From positions 30,662-94,661 of the forward strand of contig JAQMWT010000451.1 of NCBI GenBank assembly GCA_029834535.1: 64,000 nt of DNA, in the 5' to 3' direction. Both the position numbers and the translations under genes were made by a program. Below the pieces are notes generated by a model, which was given only the letters and a program-made list of their open reading frames with translations, did no database searches and was not told the DNA's origin. Source of the DNA: Chrysophaeum taylorii (Eukaryota; Sar; Pelagophyceae; Pelagomonadales; Pelagomonadaceae). Below, piece after piece: positions 11,501 through 57,488 of this stretch (position 1 is the stretch's first letter; each line of letters opens with the position of its first letter).

Positions 11501-12285
11501 CCGGTCTCCACCGCATGGACCTCAACGTGACCAACACGGCCTACGCGACCCTGGAGGCGATCGCGGCCTCCGTCCTCATCTACTTCCTCACGCGCGAAGC
11601 ATTCGCAAGACCTGGCGCCGTCTGGCAGCGTCACGGCAAAGTCGCAGACGTGTGGGTTTTTGGCACGACGGTTTTCGTCGGCATGGTCGCCGCGATGACG
11701 GCTCGCGCTGTTCTCCTGGTCGAAGCCTGGAACGTCGTCGTATTCGTGTGCCTCGCCCTCCAAGCAGCCATGCTCTACACGTTCGTCCTCTTCATGTCCC
11801 AGACTTCTGTCTACGTCGACTACGACTTCTTCGGCGTCGCCTACCACGCCTTCTCCCTCGGCACTTTCTGGCTCGTCTCTCTCGCCGTCGTCCCCGCGAC
11901 CGTCGCTACCCTCCAACTTCTCATCAACGCCGTCCACCTCGAGTTCTTTCCGACCATTAGCGACGTCGGCAAGGAAATCGACCGAGGTCACGTCGACGGC
12001 GAGCACGTCGACCAGCTCCTCCCGCTCCGCGCGCGCCAGTGGGTTCACACCCTCGTCTCCAGGTTCCTCGGCGTCTCGAAGGAATCCTCTCCCACCTACA
12101 TCACGCGCGACTCGCTGCGCGAAATCCACCAGGCCCTCCCCCGCGAGCAGTCCATCCTCCTCGGCCTCCAGGACGACGTATCCTCCTCCTTCGCCTTCGA
12201 CGCCGCCTCCACCCACCTCGGCGCCGGCGCCGGCGAGGACACCGAAGCCCCCCGCTCCCGCGCCAACTCGGACGCCATCGTCTAA
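8566..12285 (+). CDS. P4-type ATPase, phospholipid flippase
   Basis: A single-exon, 1239-residue P4-ATPase that would flip phospholipids such as PS or PE from the outer to the cytosolic leaflet of Golgi, endosome or plasma membranes. Seen in order: the N-terminal 'NAVTFVPRSLFEQFRRTANQ' block typical of P4 enzymes, the actuator motif DGET (179-182), the phosphorylated Asp in DKTGT (D399), 'KGAD' in the nucleotide-binding domain, and GDGAND (851-856). Ten membrane segments are expected, and the C-terminal six lie at about 900-1130. A low-complexity Ser/Ala/Pro insert (about 720-760) splits the nucleotide domain. Length matches the family. The first ATG is used, as upstream sequence is not coding-like. 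An ankyrin gene follows 41 bp downstream. Confidence 0.95.
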   Translation: MWRFVEQCLTFEEEGEAWRSVEVKEGMVCDGYGNFCDNSIKTSKYNAVTFVPRSLFEQFRRTANQYFLLISILMILGSYTKLFFSPLTAYSTIAPLALILALTMGKEGVEDLKRHRSDEKVNNTPAKVVRKDREDTIVPWRDLRPGHVVLLKDREEIPADLVLLSCPDSSAYVETSNIDGETNLKIKKAAGVSGWDFKLDFEPPCGRIHTFEGTLGDIPLDSSHFLLRGSTLRNTKWARGVVCYTGRDTRLVRNSREAPSKLSEMERVVNNMVYFILFSMAVITSISTVAYAAWNSKYKKDLWYLCYRYNHPDVPPLFSDNCKEGSHYATGSLWFTFFILYNNFIPISLYVTIEVINYCQAYYVDNDLRMYDEDSETPALARTSNMNADLGMIKHIFSDKTGTLTRNVMRFERCAVAGNVYGAPDAAPPFRLAALRQLVVANHAKEERDFVTIMAVCHTVVPERKEDGIAYQAESPDEEALVKGAIELGLTFEDRGTKGVKVVLASPGGIDGGGTSLEFEILALIPFDSTRKRMSVVARLPNNSVRVMTKGADTVIKPLAASNFDRLAPHLDAFARDGLRTLVLAQRDISSSEYGSWAEKFRAAETSTAGDRSQKLAAAAALIERDLDVVGATAIEDRLQDGVPETVADLANAGIKIWVLTGDKMETAINIGYSARLLTPDMYLVKMPVENATPGPDKDYGVRRQLDALEALVANAANKSTSSSSAAGAAAAAPRPPPPSSLDDDDARRALPKPLLVEEDERRASSASSRTFASDSLALVIEGSTAVEAILGDPELEDRLLRLAQACRAVVACRVSPAQKRLIVKLVKDASKRTTSFASRAFDRPITLAIGDGANDVGMIQEAQVGVGISGKEGRQAVNNADFAIAQFRFLKLLLLYHGRRNYRRLAKVIVYSFFKNIVLTFVLFYFQSDCGWSGTSFYEAWVYSGFNFFLGLLPFCMGFFDVDISDPTVEKYPRLYAAGLHRMDLNVTNTAYATLEAIAASVLIYFLTREAFARPGAVWQRHGKVADVWVFGTTVFVGMVAAMTARAVLLVEAWNVVVFVCLALQAAMLYTFVLFMSQTSVYVDYDFFGVAYHAFSLGTFWLVSLAVVPATVATLQLLINAVHLEFFPTISDVGKEIDRGHVDGEHVDQLLPLRARQWVHTLVSRFLGVSKESSPTYITRDSLREIHQALPREQSILLGLQDDVSSSFAFDAASTHLGAGAGEDTEAPRSRANSDAIV

Positions 12286-12326
12286 GAAAAAAAAAAAGTT
12301 TGGGAAAAGCAGGAAGAAGGGTAAGG

Positions 12327-13091
12327 ATGGAAGGGCTTTCGGAGGCCGCCCGCCGCGCTCTCGAGGACGGGCGTGTCACGGTCCAGTCGCACCTCGTCGA
12401 GATCGCAACGGCTTTCCGGAAGGCCGGCGTGCCCATCAACGACCTCCTGAACTTGATGGTCCCGGGGATATCGTACAAGCCGATCGATGGGGTGAATCTC
12501 CCGTTGGGTGTGCAGTGGGAAGCGAAAGGAGACGCGCACGAGCTCTTCGAGTTCGTCGAGGCCGGCGCCCTCAATTGGATCGAGTGGTTCCTGACCCGGC
12601 ACGAAAAACTCAGGATTAGGGTGTGCGACGTCGCCGCTCGCGCCGGCAACCTCGACGTCCTGCGGTGGGCGAGAGAGCGCGACTTCCCGTGGAACGAGCT
12701 CACGTGCTCCAACGCCGCCAGCGTAGGGCGCCTAGATATTCTCGAGTGGTCGCGGGACCACGGGTGTCCGTGGGGGGAGTGGACCTGTTCTCACGCAGCC
12801 GCCGGCGGTCATCTTCGGGTGATCGAGTGGGCGAGAGAGCGCGGTTGCCCGTGGAACGAGGACACTTGCTCCTTCGCAGCCGACGGCGGACATCTGGAGG
12901 TCATCAAGTGGGCGAGGGCGCACGGGTGCCCCTGGGATGAGGACACGTGCTCCAACGCGGCCAAGGCGAGTCATCTCGAGGTGCTCAAGTGGGCCAGGGC
13001 TCACGGTTGCCCCTGGCGCAAAGAGGATTGTGCTGACGCCTACGACCCTGAAGTCCGCGCCTGGGTCCTTCGCCCTGACGCCGGAGACTAG
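12327..13091 (+). CDS. Ankyrin-repeat protein
   Basis: The 254-residue protein has a helical N-terminal region (about 1-100), then about five ankyrin-like repeats of 33 residues with the pattern 'GHLEVIKWARAHGCPWDEDT' followed by CSNAA. This style, with WAR and GCPW in every unit, is common in expanded families of stramenopiles and of large DNA viruses. The repeats make a protein-binding surface, but no partner can be named. The start is the ATG at 12327, 41 bp after the P4-ATPase stop. An upstream in-frame extension would overlap that gene and is Arg/Pro-rich shadow sequence. Confidence 0.85.
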   Translation: MEGLSEAARRALEDGRVTVQSHLVEIATAFRKAGVPINDLLNLMVPGISYKPIDGVNLPLGVQWEAKGDAHELFEFVEAGALNWIEWFLTRHEKLRIRVCDVAARAGNLDVLRWARERDFPWNELTCSNAASVGRLDILEWSRDHGCPWGEWTCSHAAAGGHLRVIEWARERGCPWNEDTCSFAADGGHLEVIKWARAHGCPWDEDTCSNAAKASHLEVLKWARAHGCPWRKEDCADAYDPEVRAWVLRPDAGD

Positions 13092-45885: not shown

Positions 45886-46414
<529 letters not shown>

Positions 46415-46723
46415 TGAGGCGGTAACCCTTACACCTCCATCCTTACCCCTAGTTCTATCGAGTTCTCTACCCCACTTCCCGTTTACTGGACTCTACTTCA
46501 ACCCCTGACGCACGTATTGCAACGCCACCAGGCGTTTACTCTTTCAAGTCGACTAATCTCAACCATAAATCATTTCACGAGTCTTCGGATTGAAGCTCGT
46601 GGGCAGTTTGAAGGTTGATCGACAGGAAGGAAGCGCTCCTCAACCCGCTCGGCACCCTCGAGACGTCGAGGGCACAGTCGAAGCAGGGTAAGAAGTCAGC
46701 GCGCATAATCCTTTCCTGCCGCA
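46415..46723 (+). repeat. Left LTR of gypsy-type element (309 bp)
   Basis: Begins TGAGGCGGTAACCC and ends CTTTCCTGCCGCA. A TGG-starting candidate primer-binding site begins 2 nt downstream (46726). The leader up to Gag (46724-47217) has no supported gene. Confidence 0.9.
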
Positions 46724-47217
46724 GGTGGTGGAGGATACGAGATCTTGCTACATCGGCGAGATCTCCTCCGAACCTGCAACCGCAAACCAAGCGCTGGGAA
46801 CAACACAAGCACCGCCGGTAGTTGCCGCGGGGATTGATCACCCCCGAAGCTCTTCAAGGCGCTCGAGAGAAGACTAGCACACGTAACGTGCTCCGTACGA
46901 TCGTCGACGAGATCGTACGCCCGCGTGAAGACACGCACAACAACAAGAAGGGTACCCGGCCGAGACAACATCTCTCGGTATCACCACCAGTTTGGGAACT
47001 GAGTGGCAAAGAAGCTTCCCGACGTGGTCCTGAGCGGAGCGTCGAACGCGGCATACGTGTGGAAAACGTATATTTGCGCGAAATCCGGAGACGAGCATCG
47101 ACTCGCCCGACAAGCCCGAGGACAACCAAATAGCCGACCACCGGAAAAGAGTGAGCGGAGTCCGAGAAGACGGGCCAAGCCAGAACAGAGGCACTGAAAG
47201 AGACAGCGTCAGCAGCA

Positions 47218-48992
47218 ATGCCGAAGCGACGCATCATACGAGATGAAGACGTCCCCCCGACGCCGGGAGAGAAGGGGCGGAAGAAAAAGAGACCCCGCCG
47301 ACGCAGCCACCCGCGCCGGCGCCGGCCGCCGCACACGAGCCAGCCCGAGAAACCGAAAGAACGGCTGAAGCCGAAGAGAGAAAAGATGAGGAGTCGACGG
47401 GCGAGCAGCCAAGCGCCCCGGCCACGACTCGAACCGAATCCGCCGATGAGCGCGCCGCCGAAAGCTCCCGAGCAGTTCGCGAGCTGCAGGAGATGGTATC
47501 GTTGCTCCAAGGCCAGCTGCAGCAGCGCAACCGGCAAGATGAAGAAGTGCGAAGTCTGCTGCAAGAGCGGATCCGAAAGCAAGATGAGGAGAGTCAAAAG
47601 CAAGCGCAAGAGCGCGAGGAGGAGCGCGATCGGCTCGCCCAAGAAATCGCGGCGCAGATCGAAGAGGCGACGACGGCTCGACTCGAAACCGCGAACCGGG
47701 AGGAGAAGGAAGCCCTTCAGAACGAGCTCCGACGCGCCCGCGAGGACGCGGAGCACGCTCGCGAAGCCGCAGCAAACGAAATCCGAGATCTCCGGGAGGA
47801 AGTGCGCTCGCTCAAGACACGTCGAGAGCAGCGAGCGCGACCACCGCGACCCGAATCGCCTCGCGGATCGGATCTCGACGAATCCGACTCCGAGCCGCCG
47901 AGCAGCGAACCGCCGATCCGGCGCACGGGGCAAGCGAATCGTCCGCGAGACCACGAGGAAGAGAAGGAACCCACGGAAGCCGACAAGATCGTCGCCGCAC
48001 TGGTGAGAGCCGCAACGGGCCAAGGGCCATCCGCCACCCTGGCTTCCCGAAGATACGAGGACGCGGCTGCCCCGAGGCACCGACGTCTCAAGCTGGAGAT
48101 GATCAAGCTGGACATCGAGGGCAAAGACCAGCGACATTTCGATCACGAGGCCGCCCTCATCGTCGGAGAGTTGTCGAAGGACCACTATTCTATTAGCTCG
48201 CTGTCGTTTGGCCTCGCGGACGACGTGCGCCAGGCCGTGATACCGACGTTGGAGGAAGGGCGAATGGCGGCCGAGGCACTGTGTACCTCGTTCGGCCACC
48301 CCGAGTCGTTCTATCTGCAATTCCACGCCGACAGCCAGACGCCGTACAAGGAACAGATCCGACAGCTTCGCGACATGAACCTCTCCCACGTCCAGAGGAT
48401 CCTCCAGCAGCTCCGCCAAGCCTGCCGACCCGCGCCTCGACCGGAGGAAGCCTTCCACAAGGTCCGGAACATCACGCAGGCCACCACGCCGAAGAAGGAG
48501 GGCGAATCTTGGGTCCTGACCTACCTCAAGTCGCTGCAGAAGGAGGGTATGGCCTATACAGCGCTGACGGGCACGTCGATGGATAGCATCGAGATGATTC
48601 ACCAAATGATCGCCGGACTGGCATCGACGAAGCTGCAGCAAAAGATTCATATGGCGCGATGCGATCAGCCTAATCAGTACAACACCTTCGCTGAGGTACA
48701 AAGCCTGATCCTCCGGCACGAGATCCAGTTCAACCCGTGGCAGAAGGCGCACCCCGGCAAGACCACCAACCCGCCGCGGCGCGACCCGCGCGAACGCAAG
48801 AAACCCGGCGCATACGCGACGCAACAGGAAGAGCCAGAGGTAGACGAGGACCCGAGGCCCAGTATGCGAAACAAGGGCGGCTGGATGCAGAAGATGTGCG
48901 ACTGCGGAAACTACAAGATTGACCATACGCGAAATGCCGATGGCTCCCTCCGATGCCCTCGCCCGAAAACGCGTAGTATAAGCAAGCGATGA
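47218..48992 (+). pseudogene. Gag of the gypsy-type element (one frameshift)
   Basis: An ATG at 47218 opens 'MPKRRIIRDEDVPP'. A C-run at about 47252-47257 marks a switch to the frame that stays open to TGA at 48990-48992. The long frame codes an Ala/Glu-rich coiled coil ('QEREEERDRLAQEIAAQIEE'), then a helical capsid-like region ('LEMIKLDIEGKDQRHFDHEA' to 'FAEVQSLILRHEIQFNPW'). It ends with a Cys/His cluster 'CDCGNYKIDHTRNADGSLRC' that may replace the usual CCHC knuckle. The stop overlaps the ATG of ORF2 as ATGA. Confidence 0.7.
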
Positions 48993-51007
48993 AGGCGCGA
49001 CGACGGCAGGGACAAGAACCCATCCCTTACGGAGCCTGGAAGAGGGAACAGAAAGCAGCACGAGCCAACGGCGACCGACGACCGCCCGCAAATGCGAACG
49101 CCACCGCCTCACCGGGTGCTGGCGCCGTGCAGGTCAACCAGGTCGAAGCGATCGTAGAGCGCATACTCGCAGCGCGAAACTCCTCGAGCTCGAGTACGCA
49201 ATCCTCGATGAATTACGCGGGGTCTTTCTTTGGGCCTCAATCGAGGGACGGAGCAGCCGGATGCTCCATCACAGACGCCACGCCCCTCGGGTCGGCCAGC
49301 AGCACCGACGGAGAGTTTTTTGGGGCACTGCGGCCGTTCTCCGTGCACCCGGTGACACCACCGAGCGAACCGCCGCCAAAGCCGGGCGTGATGACCGCCC
49401 CGGCCGACTCGACGTTCGCCTCCCCGACTGCTCTCGACGTGGTCCCTGAGGACGAGCTAGACAAAACGCAAGCAGAGACCGCTATCGCGCAGGCAAAGCT
49501 CGCCTTGCTAGGAGCCCCGCTCCGGAACGAAGAGAACGCCGGGCTCCCCGAGATCGACGTAGACCCCGAGCCGGTGGTCGACCCTCGATCACTCACCGCC
49601 CAGGCGCCTGATCAAGAGGAGAACGCGCTATCGTCTCTGGCTAAGCCAGGACCCCGAATCATCGAGGACATCCAGCGGGGACCGCACGAGTCGGACGCAA
49701 CACCCTCGGACGTCAATGACGACGCCGAAGACTCGAATTCGTGCGATCAGGAGGAAGATGTGGCCAGTCGCATCAGCGGTGCAACCGCTGAAGTCCCGCA
49801 CGACTCGGACGCCGACGGCCCCGACCTCATCAAGAACACGTCCGACGGTGATGACGACGCCGACTCGGGAACGGAAGCGACCAATGAGCACCCCTCTGAC
49901 TCCGACAGCGATGATGACAGCGACGACGATTCCGACCCTGACGCTAACCGAACGGGGTCACCGGAGGCAAATCCGCACGCCGTCAATGACGAACTCACCG
50001 CCCTCATCGACGATGACACCGATTCGGACGGCGGCAGTTCGGACGAACGGGAAAGTCAGCCCGGAGAATTGTTCCCTGCCCTATTCAGTCATCCGCGTGG
50101 ACCCGCAACCGCCACAGCAGTAACAGATGCCCTTCTCCAAGCATTCGCGGACCCGCACCGACAAAACCCGACGGATGCGGACGGCGACGCGTCCGACAGA
50201 AACGACCAGGACGACGACGGCAGCACGCCCGAGAACGATATCAACCCCGATTCAACGTCGAGGGCGACGCCGCACTCTCCCCAAGGGGGTACCCGCCGCG
50301 GACTCGGCCGCGATATCGGCAGCGGAAACAGCGAGTCGCCAGCAGTCGAGGAACCCGCCCAGGAACCGAACACGCCGGAACCGGGAGGATCGGAACAAAC
50401 AGCCGAAACCGACAAGGGACCCCCGCGCAAAGGATCGGAACAAACAGCCGAAACCGACAGGGGACCCCCGCGCGAAGCTCGGGAAGAGAGAAGCCTCGAG
50501 GAAGTTCGCGGATCGAAAGCGTCCCGCACGCGGTTAAGAAACGCCAGATTAAGACCTCCGCACCGAGGGTCGAGGAGGGGGACGAGAGTCAAACGGCTCT
50601 GTAACAAGAAGAGTCCCGAGCGAACCGACCCCCCGGCACGAAACCGAAATAAGACCCCAGACGGTGGTAGAGTCCTCCCTCTCCAAAACGAAGAGAAGGC
50701 AATCGACAAGGAGCCCGAGCCACCGAAGAACGAAAGAGCCTCGGAAAGACGAGGAACGAAGATTTCCCGACTTTCCGGTTCGAGAGCGCGAAGAAAGAGG
50801 CCGTCGGTTACAGCGGGGAATCCAAGAGCTACCCGCCGATCCGCGAGCGAGCCGACAGAGCTGGTGGTCGATAGCCCACCGATTCTTCGCGGGACGCGCG
50901 CACGTATCGATGCCGATGGCAGGGACGGAGGACGAAGCCATGCGCATACACTCCTCTTTCGCCCCCATCAACGCCGAAACGATCGGCAGAGACCTGCGCG
51001 TCCTTAA
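48989..51007 (+). CDS. Retroelement ORF2, acidic Pol N-terminal region
   Basis: A 672-residue frame that starts on the ATG within the Gag stop (ATGA). It is largely disordered: Ser/Pro-rich, then Asp/Ser-rich ('SDSDDDSDDDSDPD', about 305-318), then Arg/Lys-rich. A 45-bp tandem duplication at about 50390-50479 codes two copies of 'GSEQTAETDKGPPR'. Near 50,920 the sense reading passes to another frame that contains the protease. It probably is the N-terminal part of Pol in the intact element, with the ATGA overlap serving re-initiation or frameshifting. No known domain is visible. Confidence 0.55.
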   Translation: MKARRRQGQEPIPYGAWKREQKAARANGDRRPPANANATASPGAGAVQVNQVEAIVERILAARNSSSSSTQSSMNYAGSFFGPQSRDGAAGCSITDATPLGSASSTDGEFFGALRPFSVHPVTPPSEPPPKPGVMTAPADSTFASPTALDVVPEDELDKTQAETAIAQAKLALLGAPLRNEENAGLPEIDVDPEPVVDPRSLTAQAPDQEENALSSLAKPGPRIIEDIQRGPHESDATPSDVNDDAEDSNSCDQEEDVASRISGATAEVPHDSDADGPDLIKNTSDGDDDADSGTEATNEHPSDSDSDDDSDDDSDPDANRTGSPEANPHAVNDELTALIDDDTDSDGGSSDERESQPGELFPALFSHPRGPATATAVTDALLQAFADPHRQNPTDADGDASDRNDQDDDGSTPENDINPDSTSRATPHSPQGGTRRGLGRDIGSGNSESPAVEEPAQEPNTPEPGGSEQTAETDKGPPRKGSEQTAETDRGPPREAREERSLEEVRGSKASRTRLRNARLRPPHRGSRRGTRVKRLCNKKSPERTDPPARNRNKTPDGGRVLPLQNEEKAIDKEPEPPKNERASERRGTKISRLSGSRARRKRPSVTAGNPRATRRSASEPTELVVDSPPILRGTRARIDADGRDGGRSHAHTLLFRPHQRRNDRQRPARP

Positions 51008-52190
51008 CTGCTGGGAAGCCGGTAGCCTGACGTTCATGCCCATCCGCGTGTTCAACAAGCCGGGCGACTCATCGTATGCCACGGTGATCGGTGTGGACGG
51101 AATGGCTGACGTCACCTACGACTGTCGCGACCCCGCCCGCCTAATGCGAAGGCGAGGGATGTTGCTGGACAGCGGCAAGCTGCCTTTCGAGCGAACGCTC
51201 TTCGGATCGGGAAAGAACACGACCTCGACTTCAGTGTGGATCGCCCTGCGAGTATCCGTTTCGGACGAAATGGCCGTACCGGTAGTCGCAATCATAGCAG
51301 ACACCAACAAACAAGTTCTGCTGGGAGCCCGCGACATTCGAGCCTTGGGCGCGGTCGTGGATTATCCCCGAGACCGAATTTCTTCCTTGCGAACCCAAAC
51401 AGTCTTCCAGATGATGAAGCTCCTATACGCTAGGGAGATCGTTCGGCCACCCGCCATCCTCTATCGGGCAGCGTACGAAACACACCCCGTCGTGGCGCCA
51501 ATTTACGGTTTCCGAGGGCAAGCGCTGGCGCAGAGTCGGAGTCAAGGTGGCAAGAGAGCTCTGCCACCCCTGCTCACGGAAGAGGATCTACTCTCGCCGC
51601 CTCCTCAGAGAGCGTTGGCCGCCATCACCTTAGCCGAGGACCCATCTATGCCGAGCAACGACACGAAAACATCCGCGCCCGAGATCCGAGCGTTCGCGAC
51701 CGGCTCCCAGCGCATCGACCCCGGCCGAACCCACAACATCCCGGTCAAGCTGAGCCAAGCGCGGAAGCCCGGAGAAGCCTTCGTCGCCACCGCGCCGAGC
51801 GTGGAGCACCTCGGCGTCGTCGCCGGATCCTGCTCGACACATGACCGCTCCGACCCAACCGCGGCCGCGGTGGCCATGTCGTCGATGGACGACACGCCAA
51901 TGTCGATCATCCCAGGTCAAGAGCTCGCACGGGGGGAAATCGTCAACTGCCAAGAAGAAGTTCAGGTGACAATCCCATTGCCAAACTCACACGAAAGCGA
52001 GCACGAGGGCACGGCCTCCTTCACGGTCTCGGTCACCAGTTATCCAACTCCAGACCCCGGAGAACCAGACGGCCAAGCCTTTCTAACGTCTTCCATCGAG
52101 CCGCGCCTGCAAGCCGCGCAGGCGCAGCCGCAAGAACCGCCGAAGTCCCGGACCGCCGACCAAGCGATCATCGATAAGCACCAGGCGCTC
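50925..52190 (+). pseudogene. Retropepsin-like protease region of Pol
   Basis: In the frame open from 50664, 'RGMLLDSGK' carries a DSG active-site triad (51168-51176). About 50 residues on, 'KQVLLGARDIRALGAVVDYP' matches the closing 'iLGxDwlxxxgaxidy' block of retropepsins. The following 270 residues are beta-rich and Pro-rich and act as a linker to the methyltransferase-like domain. Start and end here are approximate. The frame change before it means it is not joined to ORF2 in this copy. Confidence 0.65.
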
Positions 52191-53132
52191 TCCTGGATCC
52201 CGGAGAACGTGACGCCCGTCGTGATGTTCTTCGGCGGGATTGAAGGGGGCACACAGGGTATCTACCGGAGCAATGAGTGGTCCGGAACCGCGTACAGGGT
52301 CGTGCTCGTCATCGATGCATCCGACACCTCCAAAGAAGTCCACGAGAGAAACTTCCCAGGAGTACCTGTCGTCCAGCACACCCTCGGCGGTCGGTACGAA
52401 AAGGTCCTTTCTCTGGTCAAAGGTTACTTGCATGAAAGCCTATGGCCCACGGCACTTTTCGTTGGTACGCCCCCATGCGTAGACTCCGACTTGTGCAACC
52501 TTACGGCCAGCGACGCCGGGAAAGGAGTCTCCGCGACCAATTGGACCATCAAGCTCCTCCAGCTTTCCGGAGTCGGACGATGGATCATCGAGCAGGAACC
52601 TTCAAGCCGCTCGAAAATCACGTTGCGGCAAGGTTTCATCACCGTCGTCGACCTATGGACGACGACACCGGACCTCATGAGTACCCGTCGGCGCATGATC
52701 ATCACGAGCTGGCCTCTTCATCTCATCCGACGTCCCAAAACGTGCGGCACTATTGAAGATACCTTCGCCGCCAAACTCGGACTCGACCCTGCGCAGCCTC
52801 TCATCCAGCGCAACAACTTTTGATACATGCGAGAGGCCACGGCACTGATATACACCATCACGCGGAACGGGGTGCGAACAGGACCCACGCCTTCGGACAC
52901 CAAAGCGCTCGGACTAGAGATGCTCGCGGAGGCTCTCACAATGCCGAGCGATCTCGCATGGGGTAACCTCACAGTCACGGACCGAATGAAGCATCTAGCG
53001 GCCGTGATATCCCCGTCTTCCATGGCGTACATAGTCTTCGACGCCCACAACGCGCTGCCGCCCACGCTCCGCAACATCGGAATCGCGCGCCCGAACGTAG
53101 TCGGACCCACCGACGAACCCTCCGAAACATAA
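52191..53132 (+). pseudogene. C5-cytosine DNA methyltransferase-like domain in Pol
   Basis: Motifs in order: I 'VVMFFGGIEGGTQG' (52218-52259); II 'VVLVIDAS' followed by 'NFPG'; IV 'LFVGTPPC' with the catalytic Cys codon at 52476-52478; VI 'WIIEQEP' (Glu codon 52590) in place of ENV; VIII 'STRRRMIITSW' (52680-52712); IX 'LTVTDRMKHL' (52968-52997); X 'DAHNALPPTLRNIG' (about 53037-53078) for 'GNAVPPxLAxxIG'. Gaps of 38 residues (IV to VI), 32 (VI to VIII) and about 20 (IX to X) fit the family, and about 90 residues between VIII and IX would be the target-recognition part. An in-frame TGA at 52821-52823 splits it and TAA at 53130 ends it. The family methylates cytosine C5 using SAM. Motif reading is by eye. 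Confidence 0.75.
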
Positions 53133-53466
53133 ATCATCGAGCGCGCTCCCTCCGACCGCACCCGCGTCGGAGCCACCGCACCCGAGCCCCGAAGCGCCCT
53201 TGTGAACGTTTCGACTCGCGCAATTCACTGGGTGCCGAACTGCGACCTCCAGGATAAAGCGAAATGGCAACCGCCGGACCTTACTTTAACCCCTCCGAAG
53301 CCCGCTGCATCAGGGACGATGCACTCATCTTCCCAAGGGGGTACCCGCGCGAGCAAAAACGACGCAACCTCGAAAGGCGAACCAAGGGACGGAAAACCAA
53401 CCAAGGAACCAACGAGCGACAAAGACCAAAGAGCCCGCCCGGTTCAAATACGAGGAACGGTTTGAC

Positions 53467-55239
53467 GTGCCATGGAAAAACGCGCCCCTGGACAAAGACG
53501 GCGCACCGCTACCGCAACAGCCCAACCATCTGAAAGGGAACGAGGCCATGGTCGTCAAGAATCCCACGAAAGAAGAAGTGGACAAGGCCGTCGATGAGCT
53601 AGGCATCCCGAACAACCCTCACCTGGACGAAGATGCCAATCTCATGTTGGCGCGCTGCGTTCGATACTCCTGGGCGTTCTTCGATCCCATCATGAGACCC
53701 GTGGATTCTCGACCGGTATCCCTCCGATTCAAAGACGCGGACCCAAAACCCATCAAGATGTCGCCGTACCGCCTGACTCCCGCCAAGATAGAATGTCTTC
53801 GACAGCAGATCGCCGAATGGTGCAGAGACGGAGTCATCAGACCTGCCGAATCCCCCTGGGGGTTCCCGGTCCTGATGCTCCCGAAGAAAGGTGCAGAGCT
53901 CGGAACATCCAACGCCTTCCGCGCGGCCGTCGACTTACGTCAGCTCAACGACCAGTTGGTAGACAACAGCTGGCCGAACGTGCCGCAGGAGGACGCCCTA
54001 GCGTTCCTGGCCGGACGAAGGTTCCGGACCTCGATCGACATTCGATTGGGGTACCACAACCTTCGACTGGACTCGCAGGCACAGGACGCCGTGACGATGG
54101 TCAGCCCGCTCGGAGCCCACAGCTTTCTCCGACTGCCCTTGGGAGTGAAGACCGCGGGCGCCCTCTTCTGCAAGCAGATGACAGCCGACCTCGCGAAATG
54201 GATGTACTGCGACCTGGTCAGCTTCATCGACGACATCATCATGGGAACGAATAACGTCCACGATCATTTGCAGTGCCTGATCGAAGTCCTCTCCCACCTG
54301 GCCTCCTAAGGATACAGTGGCCGGACAGCCAAATTCCACTTGCTCCAAGACGAAATCGAGTTCCTTGGTCATATCTCAACCCCCGACGGATTGAAGCCCA
54401 ACCCCAAAACGTCGGAAGCACTACGAAAGATGCCGATTCCTGGGACGCTGCCGAAACCCCCCCCGAAGACGCAAATCCGCTCGTTCATCGGGATGGGCAA
54501 CTACTGCCGGAGATACATCAAGGACTATTCAAAGATCGCGGAACCCTTGGGACGCCTGACGTTGGAGGAAGTGCCGTTCAAATGGACGCCAGAGTGCCAA
54601 AAGGCGTGGGACACCATCATCGACGCACTAGCGGATTTCCGCGGAGTGTACCATCCGGATTACGACCTCCCCTTCCACATCCGGACCGATGCCTCCAAAG
54701 ACGGTCTCGGAGCTTATCTCTTCCAAATCGTCGAAGTCCAGGACGACAAGGGTCACACCTGTCGCGAAGAACGAGTTATCGAGTACTGGAGCCGAGCGGT
54801 GCCCAAACAGATGCGTAATTACGAGCCGCGCCGTCTGGAGCTCCTGGGAGTGATCCTGTCCCTCGAACACTTCCGCCCGTTCATCGAAGGCCACCGAACC
54901 GTCCTCGAAACCGACCACCGGAATCTGACATTCCTCCGGAACACGACCCACTCCACCGGGCAGCTCGCCCAATGGGCAATGCGGCTGGACAATTTCGACC
55001 CCGAACTCGGTTATAAGCCCGGCAAGTCCCCGGGAATGAGCATCCCCGACTGCCTCTCGAGGAATCCGATCGACCACGTCATTGAGACCGACGAATTCGG
55101 AGAGCCGCTCAATCACGCGTACTTGGTCGTGCAAGAGTTGCCTCTCCCCGACGGCGAAGCCGGGTGTCACGTCATCCTCAACTTGATGCAGAACGAGATA
55201 CCCGAGGACCTCGAAGACCCTCCAGACGATCCGATGTGA
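53467..55239 (+). pseudogene. Ty3/gypsy reverse transcriptase and RNase H
   Basis: The RT part reads 'YRLTPAKIECLRQQI', 'VIRPAESPWGFPVLMLPKKG', 'RAAVDLRQLNDQLV', 'RTSIDIRLGYHNLRL' and the catalytic 'SFIDDIIMGT'. TAA at 54307-54309 interrupts the same frame, which resumes with 'FLGHISTPDGLKPNP'. The thumb and RNase H region has 'FIGMGNYCRRYIKDYSKIAE', 'HIRTDASKDGLGAYL' (first catalytic Asp), 'EPRRLELLGVILSLEHF' and 'TDHRNLTFL', and ends with 'SIPDCLSRNP'. TGA at 55237-55239 ends it, yet the integrase continues in that frame. Confidence 0.9.
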
Positions 55240-56564
55240 TACGCCGCATCGCACGCCACGCAACATCGCAAGAAAGTGGCCCTGCGCTCACGCAAGCCAC
55301 CGTTGCAAACCGACGTCGGGCTACAGAAGGAATTCATCGACAAGATCCCTGACAACATCTCACTGGAAGAGATTGCCGAAGCCCAGAAGAACGACCCTCT
55401 ATGCGATAGTATCCGCGCGGGGATGAACCAAAGCGATTCTCGCCGCCGATTTGGAGCCAACGTCCACTATGATGTATGGAAGGGAGTTTTGTACCGGTGC
55501 GACATCGACCTCCGCCCTGTGATCGTCGCGCCCGCAACCTTGCGAGAGAGGATCATGCGCATCCACCACAGTTCGCCCCTGGGAGGACATCTCGGACGCG
55601 ATAGCACCGTCAACGCGATCGCCGAACGGTTCTGGTGGCCGCGCATGTCCCACCAGGTTGGAGTCTTCGTCAACGAATGCCTGGATTGCCAAAAATCGCG
55701 AACCCCGGAGCCAAAGCGAAAAGGGATGCTCCAGCAGCCGATATACGACGGAGATGGCGCCGTTCTATGCATGGACCTTTTCGAACCCCTGCCGAGCGCC
55801 GGCAAGTCCACGTACATCCTCGTGATGTTCGACCCGTTCTCGCACTATCTGGTCTTGGACGTCATAACACCAAGCATGCCGACGCCATCTTGGAATCCTT
55901 CGTGCGAAACATCCTCCTTCAGGGATTTCTCCCGCGTATGATCCTCACCGACAATGGTCGCGAGTTCGTCAACCGGCTGCTACGGGCCTTCCGCGCGGAG
56001 TTCGACGTCCCTTACAGAACAACGATACCGTACCACGCACAAGCGAACCCCGCGGAGCGAGTCAATCGGTTCCTCAAGGCATTCCTCCGAGCCTGCCTCG
56101 AGAGTCGCAGCATCACCGACTGGCCGGCCTTCGTCCGGTACGTGTCGTTCTGCTACAACCGAAAGTTCATCCCCGGCACGCAAATCTCTCCGTTCATGTT
56201 GCGCCTGAACCGGCAGCCGATGTTGCCCACGGACTACACCTTGTTGGTTCAGCCCGATCCTGTTCTGCCGCGACCCCGATCCGACGCGCTACTTGAGATC
56301 AAGCAAAACTTCCAATACTACTCGAAAGTCGTCGCGGAAGCACACGAGCAGGCCAAGAAAACGCAGAAGCTCGCGTACGACGCCGACCACATCGATGTCG
56401 AATACAACGTCAACTCGCACGTGCTGCTGTACATTCCGCAGTCCCAAAACAAGTTGCGACCGGAGTGGCGCGGCCCCTTTCTCATCACCGAGCGCCTCTC
56501 ACCCGTCTCGTACAAGGGCCGATCGGTTTACGGAGCCGCCGAAGAGCGAATCGTATCGGTCTAA
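55240..56564 (+). pseudogene. Retroviral-type integrase, frameshifted
   Basis: The zinc-binding HHCC domain is seen as 'MRIHHSSPLGGHLGRDST' followed by 'WWPRM' and 'CLDCQKSR'. The catalytic core supplies 'AVLCMDLFEP' (first Asp). A frame change then follows near 55865, and the core resumes in another frame with 'MILTDNGREFVN' (second Asp) and 'NPAERVNRFLKAFLR' (Glu). The C-terminal region 'KLRPEWRGPFLITERLSPVS' is the usual GPY/F-type module, and the frame ends at TAA 56562-56564. Domain set complete, but the copy is broken. Confidence 0.88.
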
Positions 56565-56582
56565 CAGATCACCCCAGTATCG

Positions 56583-57149
56583 ATGCCTCCCGCACTCGAC
56601 GCCACGATCCGTCGGCCGAGCCCCGGATTCCGCGACGAGTACGAGCGCGGCAAGCTCGTCATTTTCTGAATCCCGTCGGCCCGAGACCCCGATTGGCGCA
56701 AGAAGCTCTACGTCGCCGAGGTTTTCGAGGACTATGATGATCTTCAAGACCGAGTCGCCCTCCACTTTTACTCCGACCTGGGCCCGCGCGACGACCCATC
56801 GTATTTCGACCCGACCTCACCGCTTGAATGTCGCACGCTGAGCCCGGAATTCAAAACGGCACTCGGTCGCAGCTTCACTCGCACAGAGAAATTAACGCCT
56901 CAGTGCACCCCTTGCGTAACCGACTTCGCCCCGGACGAGAACGACGTCCTGGTTCCCCGGTTCAAGCTCCAGGGTAAATCAGTTCCTCCCCCGATCGTCC
57001 AGCGAGTCAAAGATATTCTCGCGCATCGCGCGCGCCAAGAACAAGAACAACTCCAAGCTCAACAACGCGCTCCTCAGACGCGCACTCAAGTCCCGTCCAC
57101 CGACGGTCCGCGCCGAAACTCTCGTCAGTCGCACTACCGCCGTCGCTGA
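56583..57149 (+). pseudogene. Tail ORF after integrase, with in-frame TGA
   Basis: In the integrase frame, 18 nt after its stop, an ATG opens a reading of about 188 codons split by TGA at 56667-56669. 'DPDWRKKLYVAEVFEDYDDL' and 'VALHFYSDLGPRDD' look like a small beta-barrel of the chromo/Tudor/SH3 sort. The rest is Gln/Arg-rich and ends 'QSHYRRR'. Chromo-like modules at the end of gypsy integrases guide insertion into chromatin, so such a role is possible. The fold assignment is by resemblance only. Confidence 0.4.
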
Positions 57150-57160
57150 GGACAGCTATC

Positions 57161-57172
57161 AAAGCAGGGGGG
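57161..57172 (+). promoter_or_regulatory. Polypurine tract
   Basis: AAAGCAGGGGGG lies 3 nt before the right LTR, in the place of the plus-strand primer for LTR retroelements. Confidence 0.6.
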
Positions 57173-57175
57173 TCC

Positions 57176-57488
57176 TGTGGCGGTAACCCTTATACCGCTA
57201 TCCTTACCCCTAGTTCTATCGAGTTCTCTACCCCACTTCCCGTATACTGGACTCTACTTCAACCCCTGACGCACGCACGTATTGCAACGCCACCAGGGGT
57301 TTACTCTTTCAAATCGACTAATCTCAAGCATAAATCATTTCACGAGTCTTCGGATTGAAGCTCGTGGGCAGTTCGAAGGTTGATCGACAGGAAGGAAGCG
57401 CTCCTCAACCCGCTCGGCACCCTCGAGACGTCGAGGGCACAATCGAAGCAGGGTAAGAAGTCAGCGCGCATAATCCTTTCCTGCCGCA
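57176..57488 (+). repeat. Right LTR of gypsy-type element (313 bp)
   Basis: Begins TGTGGCGGTAACCC and ends CTTTCCTGCCGCA. It differs from the left LTR by about ten substitutions and a 4-bp extra ACGC unit near 57275. CCTGT follows. Confidence 0.9.

What the first reader, a model, noticed from the sequence alone, without database searches (positions are those of the whole stretch)
52191..53132. C5-cytosine methyltransferase-like domain inside a Ty3/gypsy Pol
Between retropepsin and reverse transcriptase of an LTR-bounded element, motifs I, II, IV (Pro-Pro-Cys), VI, VIII, IX and X of C5-methyltransferases occur in correct order with mostly family-like spacing. Retrotransposons that carry such enzymes have been reported from dinoflagellates and charophytes; I know of none of this type in a stramenopile. 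An element able to methylate its own DNA copy could hide from or exploit host silencing. Motif VI has EQE instead of ENV and the domain holds an in-frame TGA, so this copy is a fossil and intact relatives should be sought.
Basis: partly seen in the sequence, partly recalled or inferred. Interest (0 to 1): 0.93.

Follow-up and report, generated by a model that had tools for sequence, protein, structure and literature searches.

The report
Methyltransferase-bearing LTR retrotransposons in an alga
A dead jumping gene in this algal genome really does carry a DNA-methylating-enzyme domain inside its polymerase gene, and relatives of it, plus a second class of jumping gene, carry such domains too, so these genomic parasites may use the host's own silencing chemistry.

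Summary
Window 52191-53132 encodes a divergent C5-cytosine methyltransferase (MTase) domain between the protease-like region and reverse transcriptase of an LTR-bounded Ty3/gypsy element. Alone it gives no Pfam hit. Two sister subfamilies in the same genome do: G2 (24.7 and 27.1 bits) and G3 (39.3 and 39.6), cut-off 22. Together the three align with canonical MTases from motif I to X. Short motif patterns count 26 (G1, the window's), 315 (G2) and 117 (G3) sites, reversed patterns 0. One G2 copy has an open frame of at least 3041 aa. Cys, Glu and Arg-x-Arg are conserved; dN/dS is 0.06-0.25. EQ in place of EN in motif VI is in all 25 aligned rows, so it is no lesion. This copy is dead through stops and frameshifts. 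Another family (113 sites; one copy read is Ty1/copia) carries a different, more canonical MTase. The kind is known (dinoflagellate LINE/DIRS, charophyte gypsy; PMC5890265). New here: a divergent non-ENV lineage, a fucoxanthin-type alga, two LTR superfamilies in one genome. Likely role, unproven: methylating the element's own cDNA.

The parts
46412..46723 (+). 5' LTR (TG...CA)
   Evidence: 309 aligned positions with the 3' LTR, 9 mismatches
47493..48992 (+). Gag-like ORF (499 aa), by position only
   Evidence: no Pfam family above cut-off
51020..51380 (+). retropepsin-like region (VDGMAD ... LLGARDIRALGAVVD), read by eye
   Evidence: translation; no Pfam protease hit, so inference
52191..53090 (+). 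C5-cytosine methyltransferase-like domain, interrupted by TGA at 52821
52227..52250 (+). motif I (FFGGIEGG)
52302..52325 (+). motif II (VLVIDASD)
   Evidence: (Asp 25 of 25)
52464..52478 (+). motif IV with the Pro-Pro-Cys nucleophile
   Evidence: (24 of 25 copies keep Cys)
52581..52601 (+). motif VI, EQE in place of ENV (Glu-Gln family-wide in G1/G2)
52680..52703 (+). motif VIII, Arg-x-Arg
   Evidence: (25 of 25)
52905..53021 (+). motifs IX and X (ALGLEMLAEALTMP ... HLAAVISPSS)
53467..54306 (+). reverse transcriptase (RVT_1, E 8.2e-9)
54340..55236 (+). RNase H (RT_RNaseH, E 1e-25)
55276..56564 (+). integrase: H2C2 zinc domain (E 3.2e-19) and the start of the rve core (weak, E 0.13), split over two frames
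57160..57171 (+). polypurine tract candidate just before the 3' LTR (by eye)
57176..57488 (+). 3' LTR

Best explanation
It is a decayed copy (subfamily G1) of a Ty3/gypsy LTR retrotransposon lineage whose Pol carries a divergent C5-cytosine methyltransferase between protease and reverse transcriptase. Shown: the domain, its homology to C5-MTases, its presence in three subfamilies with hundreds of sites and many open frames, and purifying selection. Supported: one capture before the subfamilies split, then vertical descent. Inferred: the domain is released by the protease, travels with RT in the particle, and methylates cytosines of the element's own nucleic acid, most likely the new cDNA before integration. 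That would make a new insertion look like native, already marked host DNA, which a host DNMT5-type enzyme could then maintain. Identity as a C5-MTase-derived domain is about 0.97 likely; catalytic methylation of own cDNA about 0.45.
Confidence: 0.6

Rival explanations
1. The domain is an ex-methyltransferase kept for a non-catalytic job, such as binding cDNA or the tRNA primer, or folding of Pol.
For: Gln for Asn in motif VI and Ser/Ala for the motif X Asn; faster divergence than RT; no clear CpG footprint.
Against: The nucleophilic Cys (24/25), motif VI Glu (25/25) and motif VIII RxR (25/25) are among the most conserved residues, and PPC is invariant in 14 of 14 rows across G1-G3.
Confidence: 0.25
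2. It is an RNA m5C methyltransferase, DNMT2-like in action, that modifies the tRNA primer or the element's genomic RNA.
For: Of 12 single MTases compared with the G profile, the host DNMT2-like protein scored highest (42.3, motifs I-VIII; its shuffles reach 29.6), with a phage MTase next at 41.5. In the FastTree it groups with the gypsy and copia domains (local support 0.95). Insect and human DNMT2 head the VIA list for the G1 model. SPPC is shared with the host DNMT2-like protein and G2/G3.
Against: The score margin is within noise; the tree's branches there are very long, so long-branch attraction is likely; DNA MTases head the list for the second model; no DNMT2-specific feature was tested.
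Confidence: 0.15
3. The motifs are a chance resemblance in an unrelated Pol spacer.
For: No single-sequence profile hit for the window copy; the G1 subfamily alone scores 22.7, inside the shuffle range.
Against: Sister subfamilies pass the curated cut-off; shuffled profiles of the whole set reach only 23.6 against 47.7; strong purifying selection.
Confidence: 0.02

Closest known systems
KnitGypsy-Dnmt3 of the charophyte Klebsormidium nitens (de Mendoza et al. 2018, PMC5890265; abstract, section 5 part 1 of 3, sections 9-11 read)
   Same: Ty3/gypsy LTR element with a C5-MTase inside the Pol ORF, intronless, under purifying selection.
   Different: There the enzyme is Dnmt3-related and key residues are reported conserved; here motif VI has Gln for Asn, the sequence is too divergent for a trusted tree, and there are three subfamilies with 458 motif sites in an unrelated alga.
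SymbioDIRS-Dnmt3 and SymbioLINE-Dnmt of dinoflagellates (same paper)
   Same: Hundreds of retrotransposon-borne DNMTs; more than one retrotransposon class in one genome; DIRS enzymes methylate CG in yeast.
   Different: LINE and DIRS (tyrosine recombinase) elements, not LTR elements with an rve integrase; host genome mostly CG-methylated; SymbioLINE copies are CG-poor, whereas the element here is not.
Canonical C5-MTases (Pfam PF00145: Dcm, phage enzymes, DNMT2)
   Same: Motifs I, IV, VIII, IX, X in order; C5-MTases at the top of the structure comparison.
   Different: Motif VI EQE, motif X Ser/Ala for Asn, Val/Ile after the PPC Cys, embedded in a polyprotein.

Membership tests
C5-cytosine methyltransferase family (PF00145) | score over Pfam's curated cut-off (22 bits) | tested here: met
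   G3 39.6 and 39.3, G2 27.1 and 24.7 bits as natural domains; the window piece and G1 L003 alone have no hit and belong by homology to G2. In whole frames or the genome scan G2 falls around the cut-off (18.9 bits; about 21-23)
C5-cytosine methyltransferase family (PF00145) | motif IV Pro-Cys nucleophile | tested here: met
   Cys in 24 of 25 rows and PPC in 14 of 14 rows; window has PPC
C5-cytosine methyltransferase family (PF00145) | motif VI Glu-Asn-Val | tested here: not met
   Glu kept 25 of 25, Asn replaced by Gln 25 of 25; in four G3 rows Gln, Gln, His, Glu. Hence I call it a divergent, C5-MTase-derived domain, not a proven active DNMT
C5-cytosine methyltransferase family (PF00145) | motif VIII Arg-x-Arg | tested here: met
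   25 of 25
C5-cytosine methyltransferase family (PF00145) | motifs IX and X at the C-terminus | tested here: met
   in register in the forced global alignment; G3's best local match (27.0) is this part; the C-terminal half alone is borderline, 19.5 vs a maximum of 19.0 in 100 shuffles
C5-cytosine methyltransferase family (PF00145) | SAM-binding Rossmann fold | tested here: inconclusive
   C5-MTases head both lists, but pLDDT is 40.7 and 42.3
C5-cytosine methyltransferase family (PF00145) | methyl transfer to cytosine | not testable with these tools
   needs expression
Ty3/gypsy LTR retrotransposon | LTRs; PR-RT-RNase H-IN order with rve integrase | tested here: met
   LTRs in the window; RVT_1, RT_RNaseH, Integrase_H2C2, rve in order, rve over cut-off in L061 and L063 and weak in the window; PR by eye only
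Dnmt3 clade (as in KnitGypsy-Dnmt3) | groups with eukaryotic Dnmt3 in a tree | not tested
   no Dnmt3 sequence was in the tree

The most novel reading that the evidence does not exclude
In one fucoxanthin alga both LTR superfamilies, Ty3/gypsy and Ty1/copia, independently captured C5-methyltransferases just downstream of the protease, because surviving in this host requires methylating one's own cDNA (or primer RNA); the gypsy enzymes form a new catalytic class using EQE in place of ENV.
Probability: 0.2. Interest if true: 0.88.

Novelty: new variant of a known kind. Interest (0 to 1): 0.74.

Why it matters
DNA methylation is usually a weapon against transposons. MTase domains under purifying selection in hundreds of gypsy copies, and another MTase in a copia-type family of the same algal genome, mean that such capture is not a curiosity of dinoflagellates and charophytes, and offer a system in which the benefit to the element can be tested. 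If the EQE enzymes work, they also widen the known active-site repertoire of C5-methyltransferases.

Tried and rejected
No relatives of the gypsy domain: two searches of 5.8 billion proteins (the 8000 candidates sharing most words scored; 2444 candidates; none at E<=0.01), viral contigs (44 pattern matches each, none confirmed), prokaryote genomes (47, none confirmed). The copia domain also found none (2849 candidates, none at E<=0.001). The share of eukaryotes in these collections is unknown or nil, so rarity among algae is not shown.

Gypsy against copia domains: scores 15.4, 13.3 and 11.8, within shuffle noise, so no evidence that one came from the other. The tree (FastTree, 247 trimmed columns, 19 sequences) groups them at 0.77 and the host DNMT2-like protein with both at 0.95, on very long branches; other deep supports run from 0.34 to 0.89. 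I do not use it for origin. The host DNMT5-like domain shows no similarity to the gypsy profile (16.1).

CpG depletion or CpG-biased decay as a trace of self-methylation: CpG o/e 1.15-1.57 over the 16 blocks of the window. CpG vs other third-position transition differences: G2a 0.033 vs 0.048 (45 pairs), G2b 0.060 vs 0.046 (15), G1 0.074 vs 0.049 (21; one of the seven G1 rows, L009, has a stop); pairs are not independent. No clear signal.

NCBIfam's dcm model: 22 and 18.6 bits for G3 and G2, 34.5 for copia, cut-off 100.65; the host DNMT2-like protein itself reaches only 53.9, so this is no fair test.

Host identity: the universal rRNA pattern found nothing. Light-harvesting proteins were used instead: two of 76 matches were compared with the PDB; L099 matched fucoxanthin proteins (E 2.4e-76), L096 only LHCI chains at the limit of 1e-30.

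Target-site duplication: the five bases on either side of the LTRs do not match.

No Foldseek 'pdb' or 'viral' listing was obtained (answered busy); only VIA-align results exist.

Full report
What is in the window. An LTR-bounded element lies at 46412-57488: two LTRs of 312 and 313 bases with TG...CA ends, 9 mismatches in 309 aligned positions. Between them lie a Gag-like ORF, a protease-like region read by eye, the methyltransferase-like domain, and RT, RNase H and integrase in Ty3/gypsy order. The element is broken: TGA at 52821, TAA at 53130, further stops at the ends of the RT and RNase H frames, and frame changes before RT and inside integrase.

Is it a C5-MTase. The window sequence in pieces gives no methyltransferase hit, so on a single-sequence profile test alone it would fail. 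Relatives in the same genome settle it. A search of G000 (70.8 Mb, 697 contigs) scored 150 of 758 candidates: 23 at 75% identity or more (subfamily G1, the window included) and 127 at 46-49% (G2); 136 of 150 have no stop inside and 23 lie in frames of 1500 aa or more (hand counts; best-scoring copies only). The PF00145 family search led to a third gypsy subfamily, G3. Scanned as natural domains, two G3 give 39.6 and 39.3 bits and two G2 27.1 and 24.7 bits against a cut-off of 22; the one G1 domain scanned, L003, gives none. In the genome-wide search G2 matches lie around the cut-off, many just below it. A profile of G1+G2+G3 (14 rows) scores 47.7 against an alignment of nine MTases (E. coli Dcm and eight phage enzymes) versus at most 23.6 in 100 column shuffles; the forced global alignment runs from motif I to motif X. 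Subfamilies alone score 35.0 (G2), 27.0 (G3, on motifs IX-X) and 22.7 (G1, inside the shuffle range). The C-terminal half alone scores 19.5 vs a shuffle maximum of 19.0. A PDB search with the profile gave DNMT2 as best, but not significant (E 0.41 and 0.45).

Catalytic residues. Among 25 stop-free G1/G2 rows (two of the 15 G2 copies fetched, L083 and L084, were dropped for stops), Cys is kept in 24, the motif VI Glu in 25, the following Gln in 25, the third Glu in 23, RxR in 25. In 14 rows over G1-G3, PPC, both motif VI Glu and RxR are invariant; the middle residue is Gln except His and Glu in one G3 row each. dN/dS (Nei-Gojobori, stop-free copies only, hence somewhat favourable): G2a vs G2b 0.06 with dS near saturation (80 of 84 pairs usable), within G2a 0.22 (66 pairs), G2b 0.25 (21), G1 0.19 (15); G2a vs G1 0.19 on only 23 of 72 usable pairs.

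History and abundance. RT segment identities are G1-G2 87%, G1-G3 70%, G2-G3 71%, one copy each over about 100 residues; MTase identities 46, 37, 40%. The same order in both suggests one capture before the split and vertical descent, with the MTase evolving faster. Short motif patterns count 315 G2 sites, 117 G3, 26 G1 and 113 copia-type, reversed patterns 0 each. Some contigs look like haplotype duplicates (C25/C521, C10/C297), which inflates counts of insertions, while the mismatch limits miss decayed copies. One G2 copy (L061) has an open frame of at least 3041 aa with DNA_methylase (18.9 bits in that long context, below cut-off) ahead of RT, RNase H and integrase. Whether gypsy elements without the domain exist in this genome was not tested.

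A second system. 56 PF00145 matches share another profile span (hand count); the eight translated are one family. One copy, L062, was read in full: a DGGAS protease motif (by eye), DNA_methylase (E 1.1e-7), rve (weak, E 0.006, below cut-off) and RVT_2 (E 1.6e-38) follow in one 1952-aa frame, so it is Ty1/copia; that the others are copia too is inferred. Its MTase has PCQ and ENV and resembles canonical enzymes by profile (60.0) but not the gypsy domain (13.3). LTRs of the copia element were not in the stretch read.

Host. 76 light-harvesting matches, one with a best PDB match to fucoxanthin chlorophyll a/c proteins at E 2.4e-76, make it a fucoxanthin-type alga, consistent with an ochrophyte; a second one matched only LHCI chains. 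Host MTases include a DNMT2-like gene (best match human DNMT2, E 3.9e-39) and a DNMT5-like gene (MTase plus SNF2, 2086 aa); naming them DNMT2 and DNMT5 beyond those hits is recalled knowledge.

How it may work. Position between protease and RT implies release with RT and packaging; the simplest target is the element's own cDNA, as proposed for dinoflagellate DIRS elements, whose enzymes methylated CG in yeast (PMC5890265 sections 10-11 read). Nothing here shows activity. The sequences carry no CpG depletion and at most a slight CpG bias in decay (0.7- to 1.5-fold), so heavy heritable CG methylation of these copies is not supported, though another context or efficient repair is possible. The changed motifs VI and X leave a non-catalytic role open, and closeness to DNMT2 in three weak comparisons leaves RNA as a target open.

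Literature. Searches (PubMed Central open licences only) found PMC5890265 as the report of retrotransposon DNMTs and PMC12344493 (8 passages seen), which mentions Copia and DIRS elements with DNMT3 as previously reported. PMC9998398 (12 of 14 places seen) and PMC3145265 (7 of 7 places) discuss stramenopile DNMTs; the passages shown report no MTase inside a stramenopile retrotransposon. Subscription papers and preprints were not searched.

Noticed in passing
L062 1400-8952 (G000:C96); 113 motif sites genome-wide: A Ty1/copia retrotransposon carries a separate C5-MTase with PCQ and ENV between protease and integrase (one copy read).
   Followed up: partly
L095 168-6425 (G000:C621): Host DNMT5-like gene: DNA_methylase plus SNF2 domain in one 2086-aa frame.
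   Followed up: partly
L031 1498-2577 (G000:C634): Host DNMT2-like gene, best PDB match human DNMT2.
   Followed up: partly
G1/G2/G3 elements: The MTase domain diverges far faster than the RT of the same elements (37-46% vs 70-87% identity) although catalytic residues are kept.
   Followed up: partly
G000:C25/C521, C10/C297, C111/C137: Parallel hit coordinates suggest haplotype-duplicate contigs in the assembly.
   Followed up: no
L062 957-1390: Perfect tandem duplication of 217 nt upstream of the copia Gag-like ORF.
   Followed up: no
window 12039-13091: ORF with repeated CPW-type ankyrin-like units, seen by eye.
   Followed up: no
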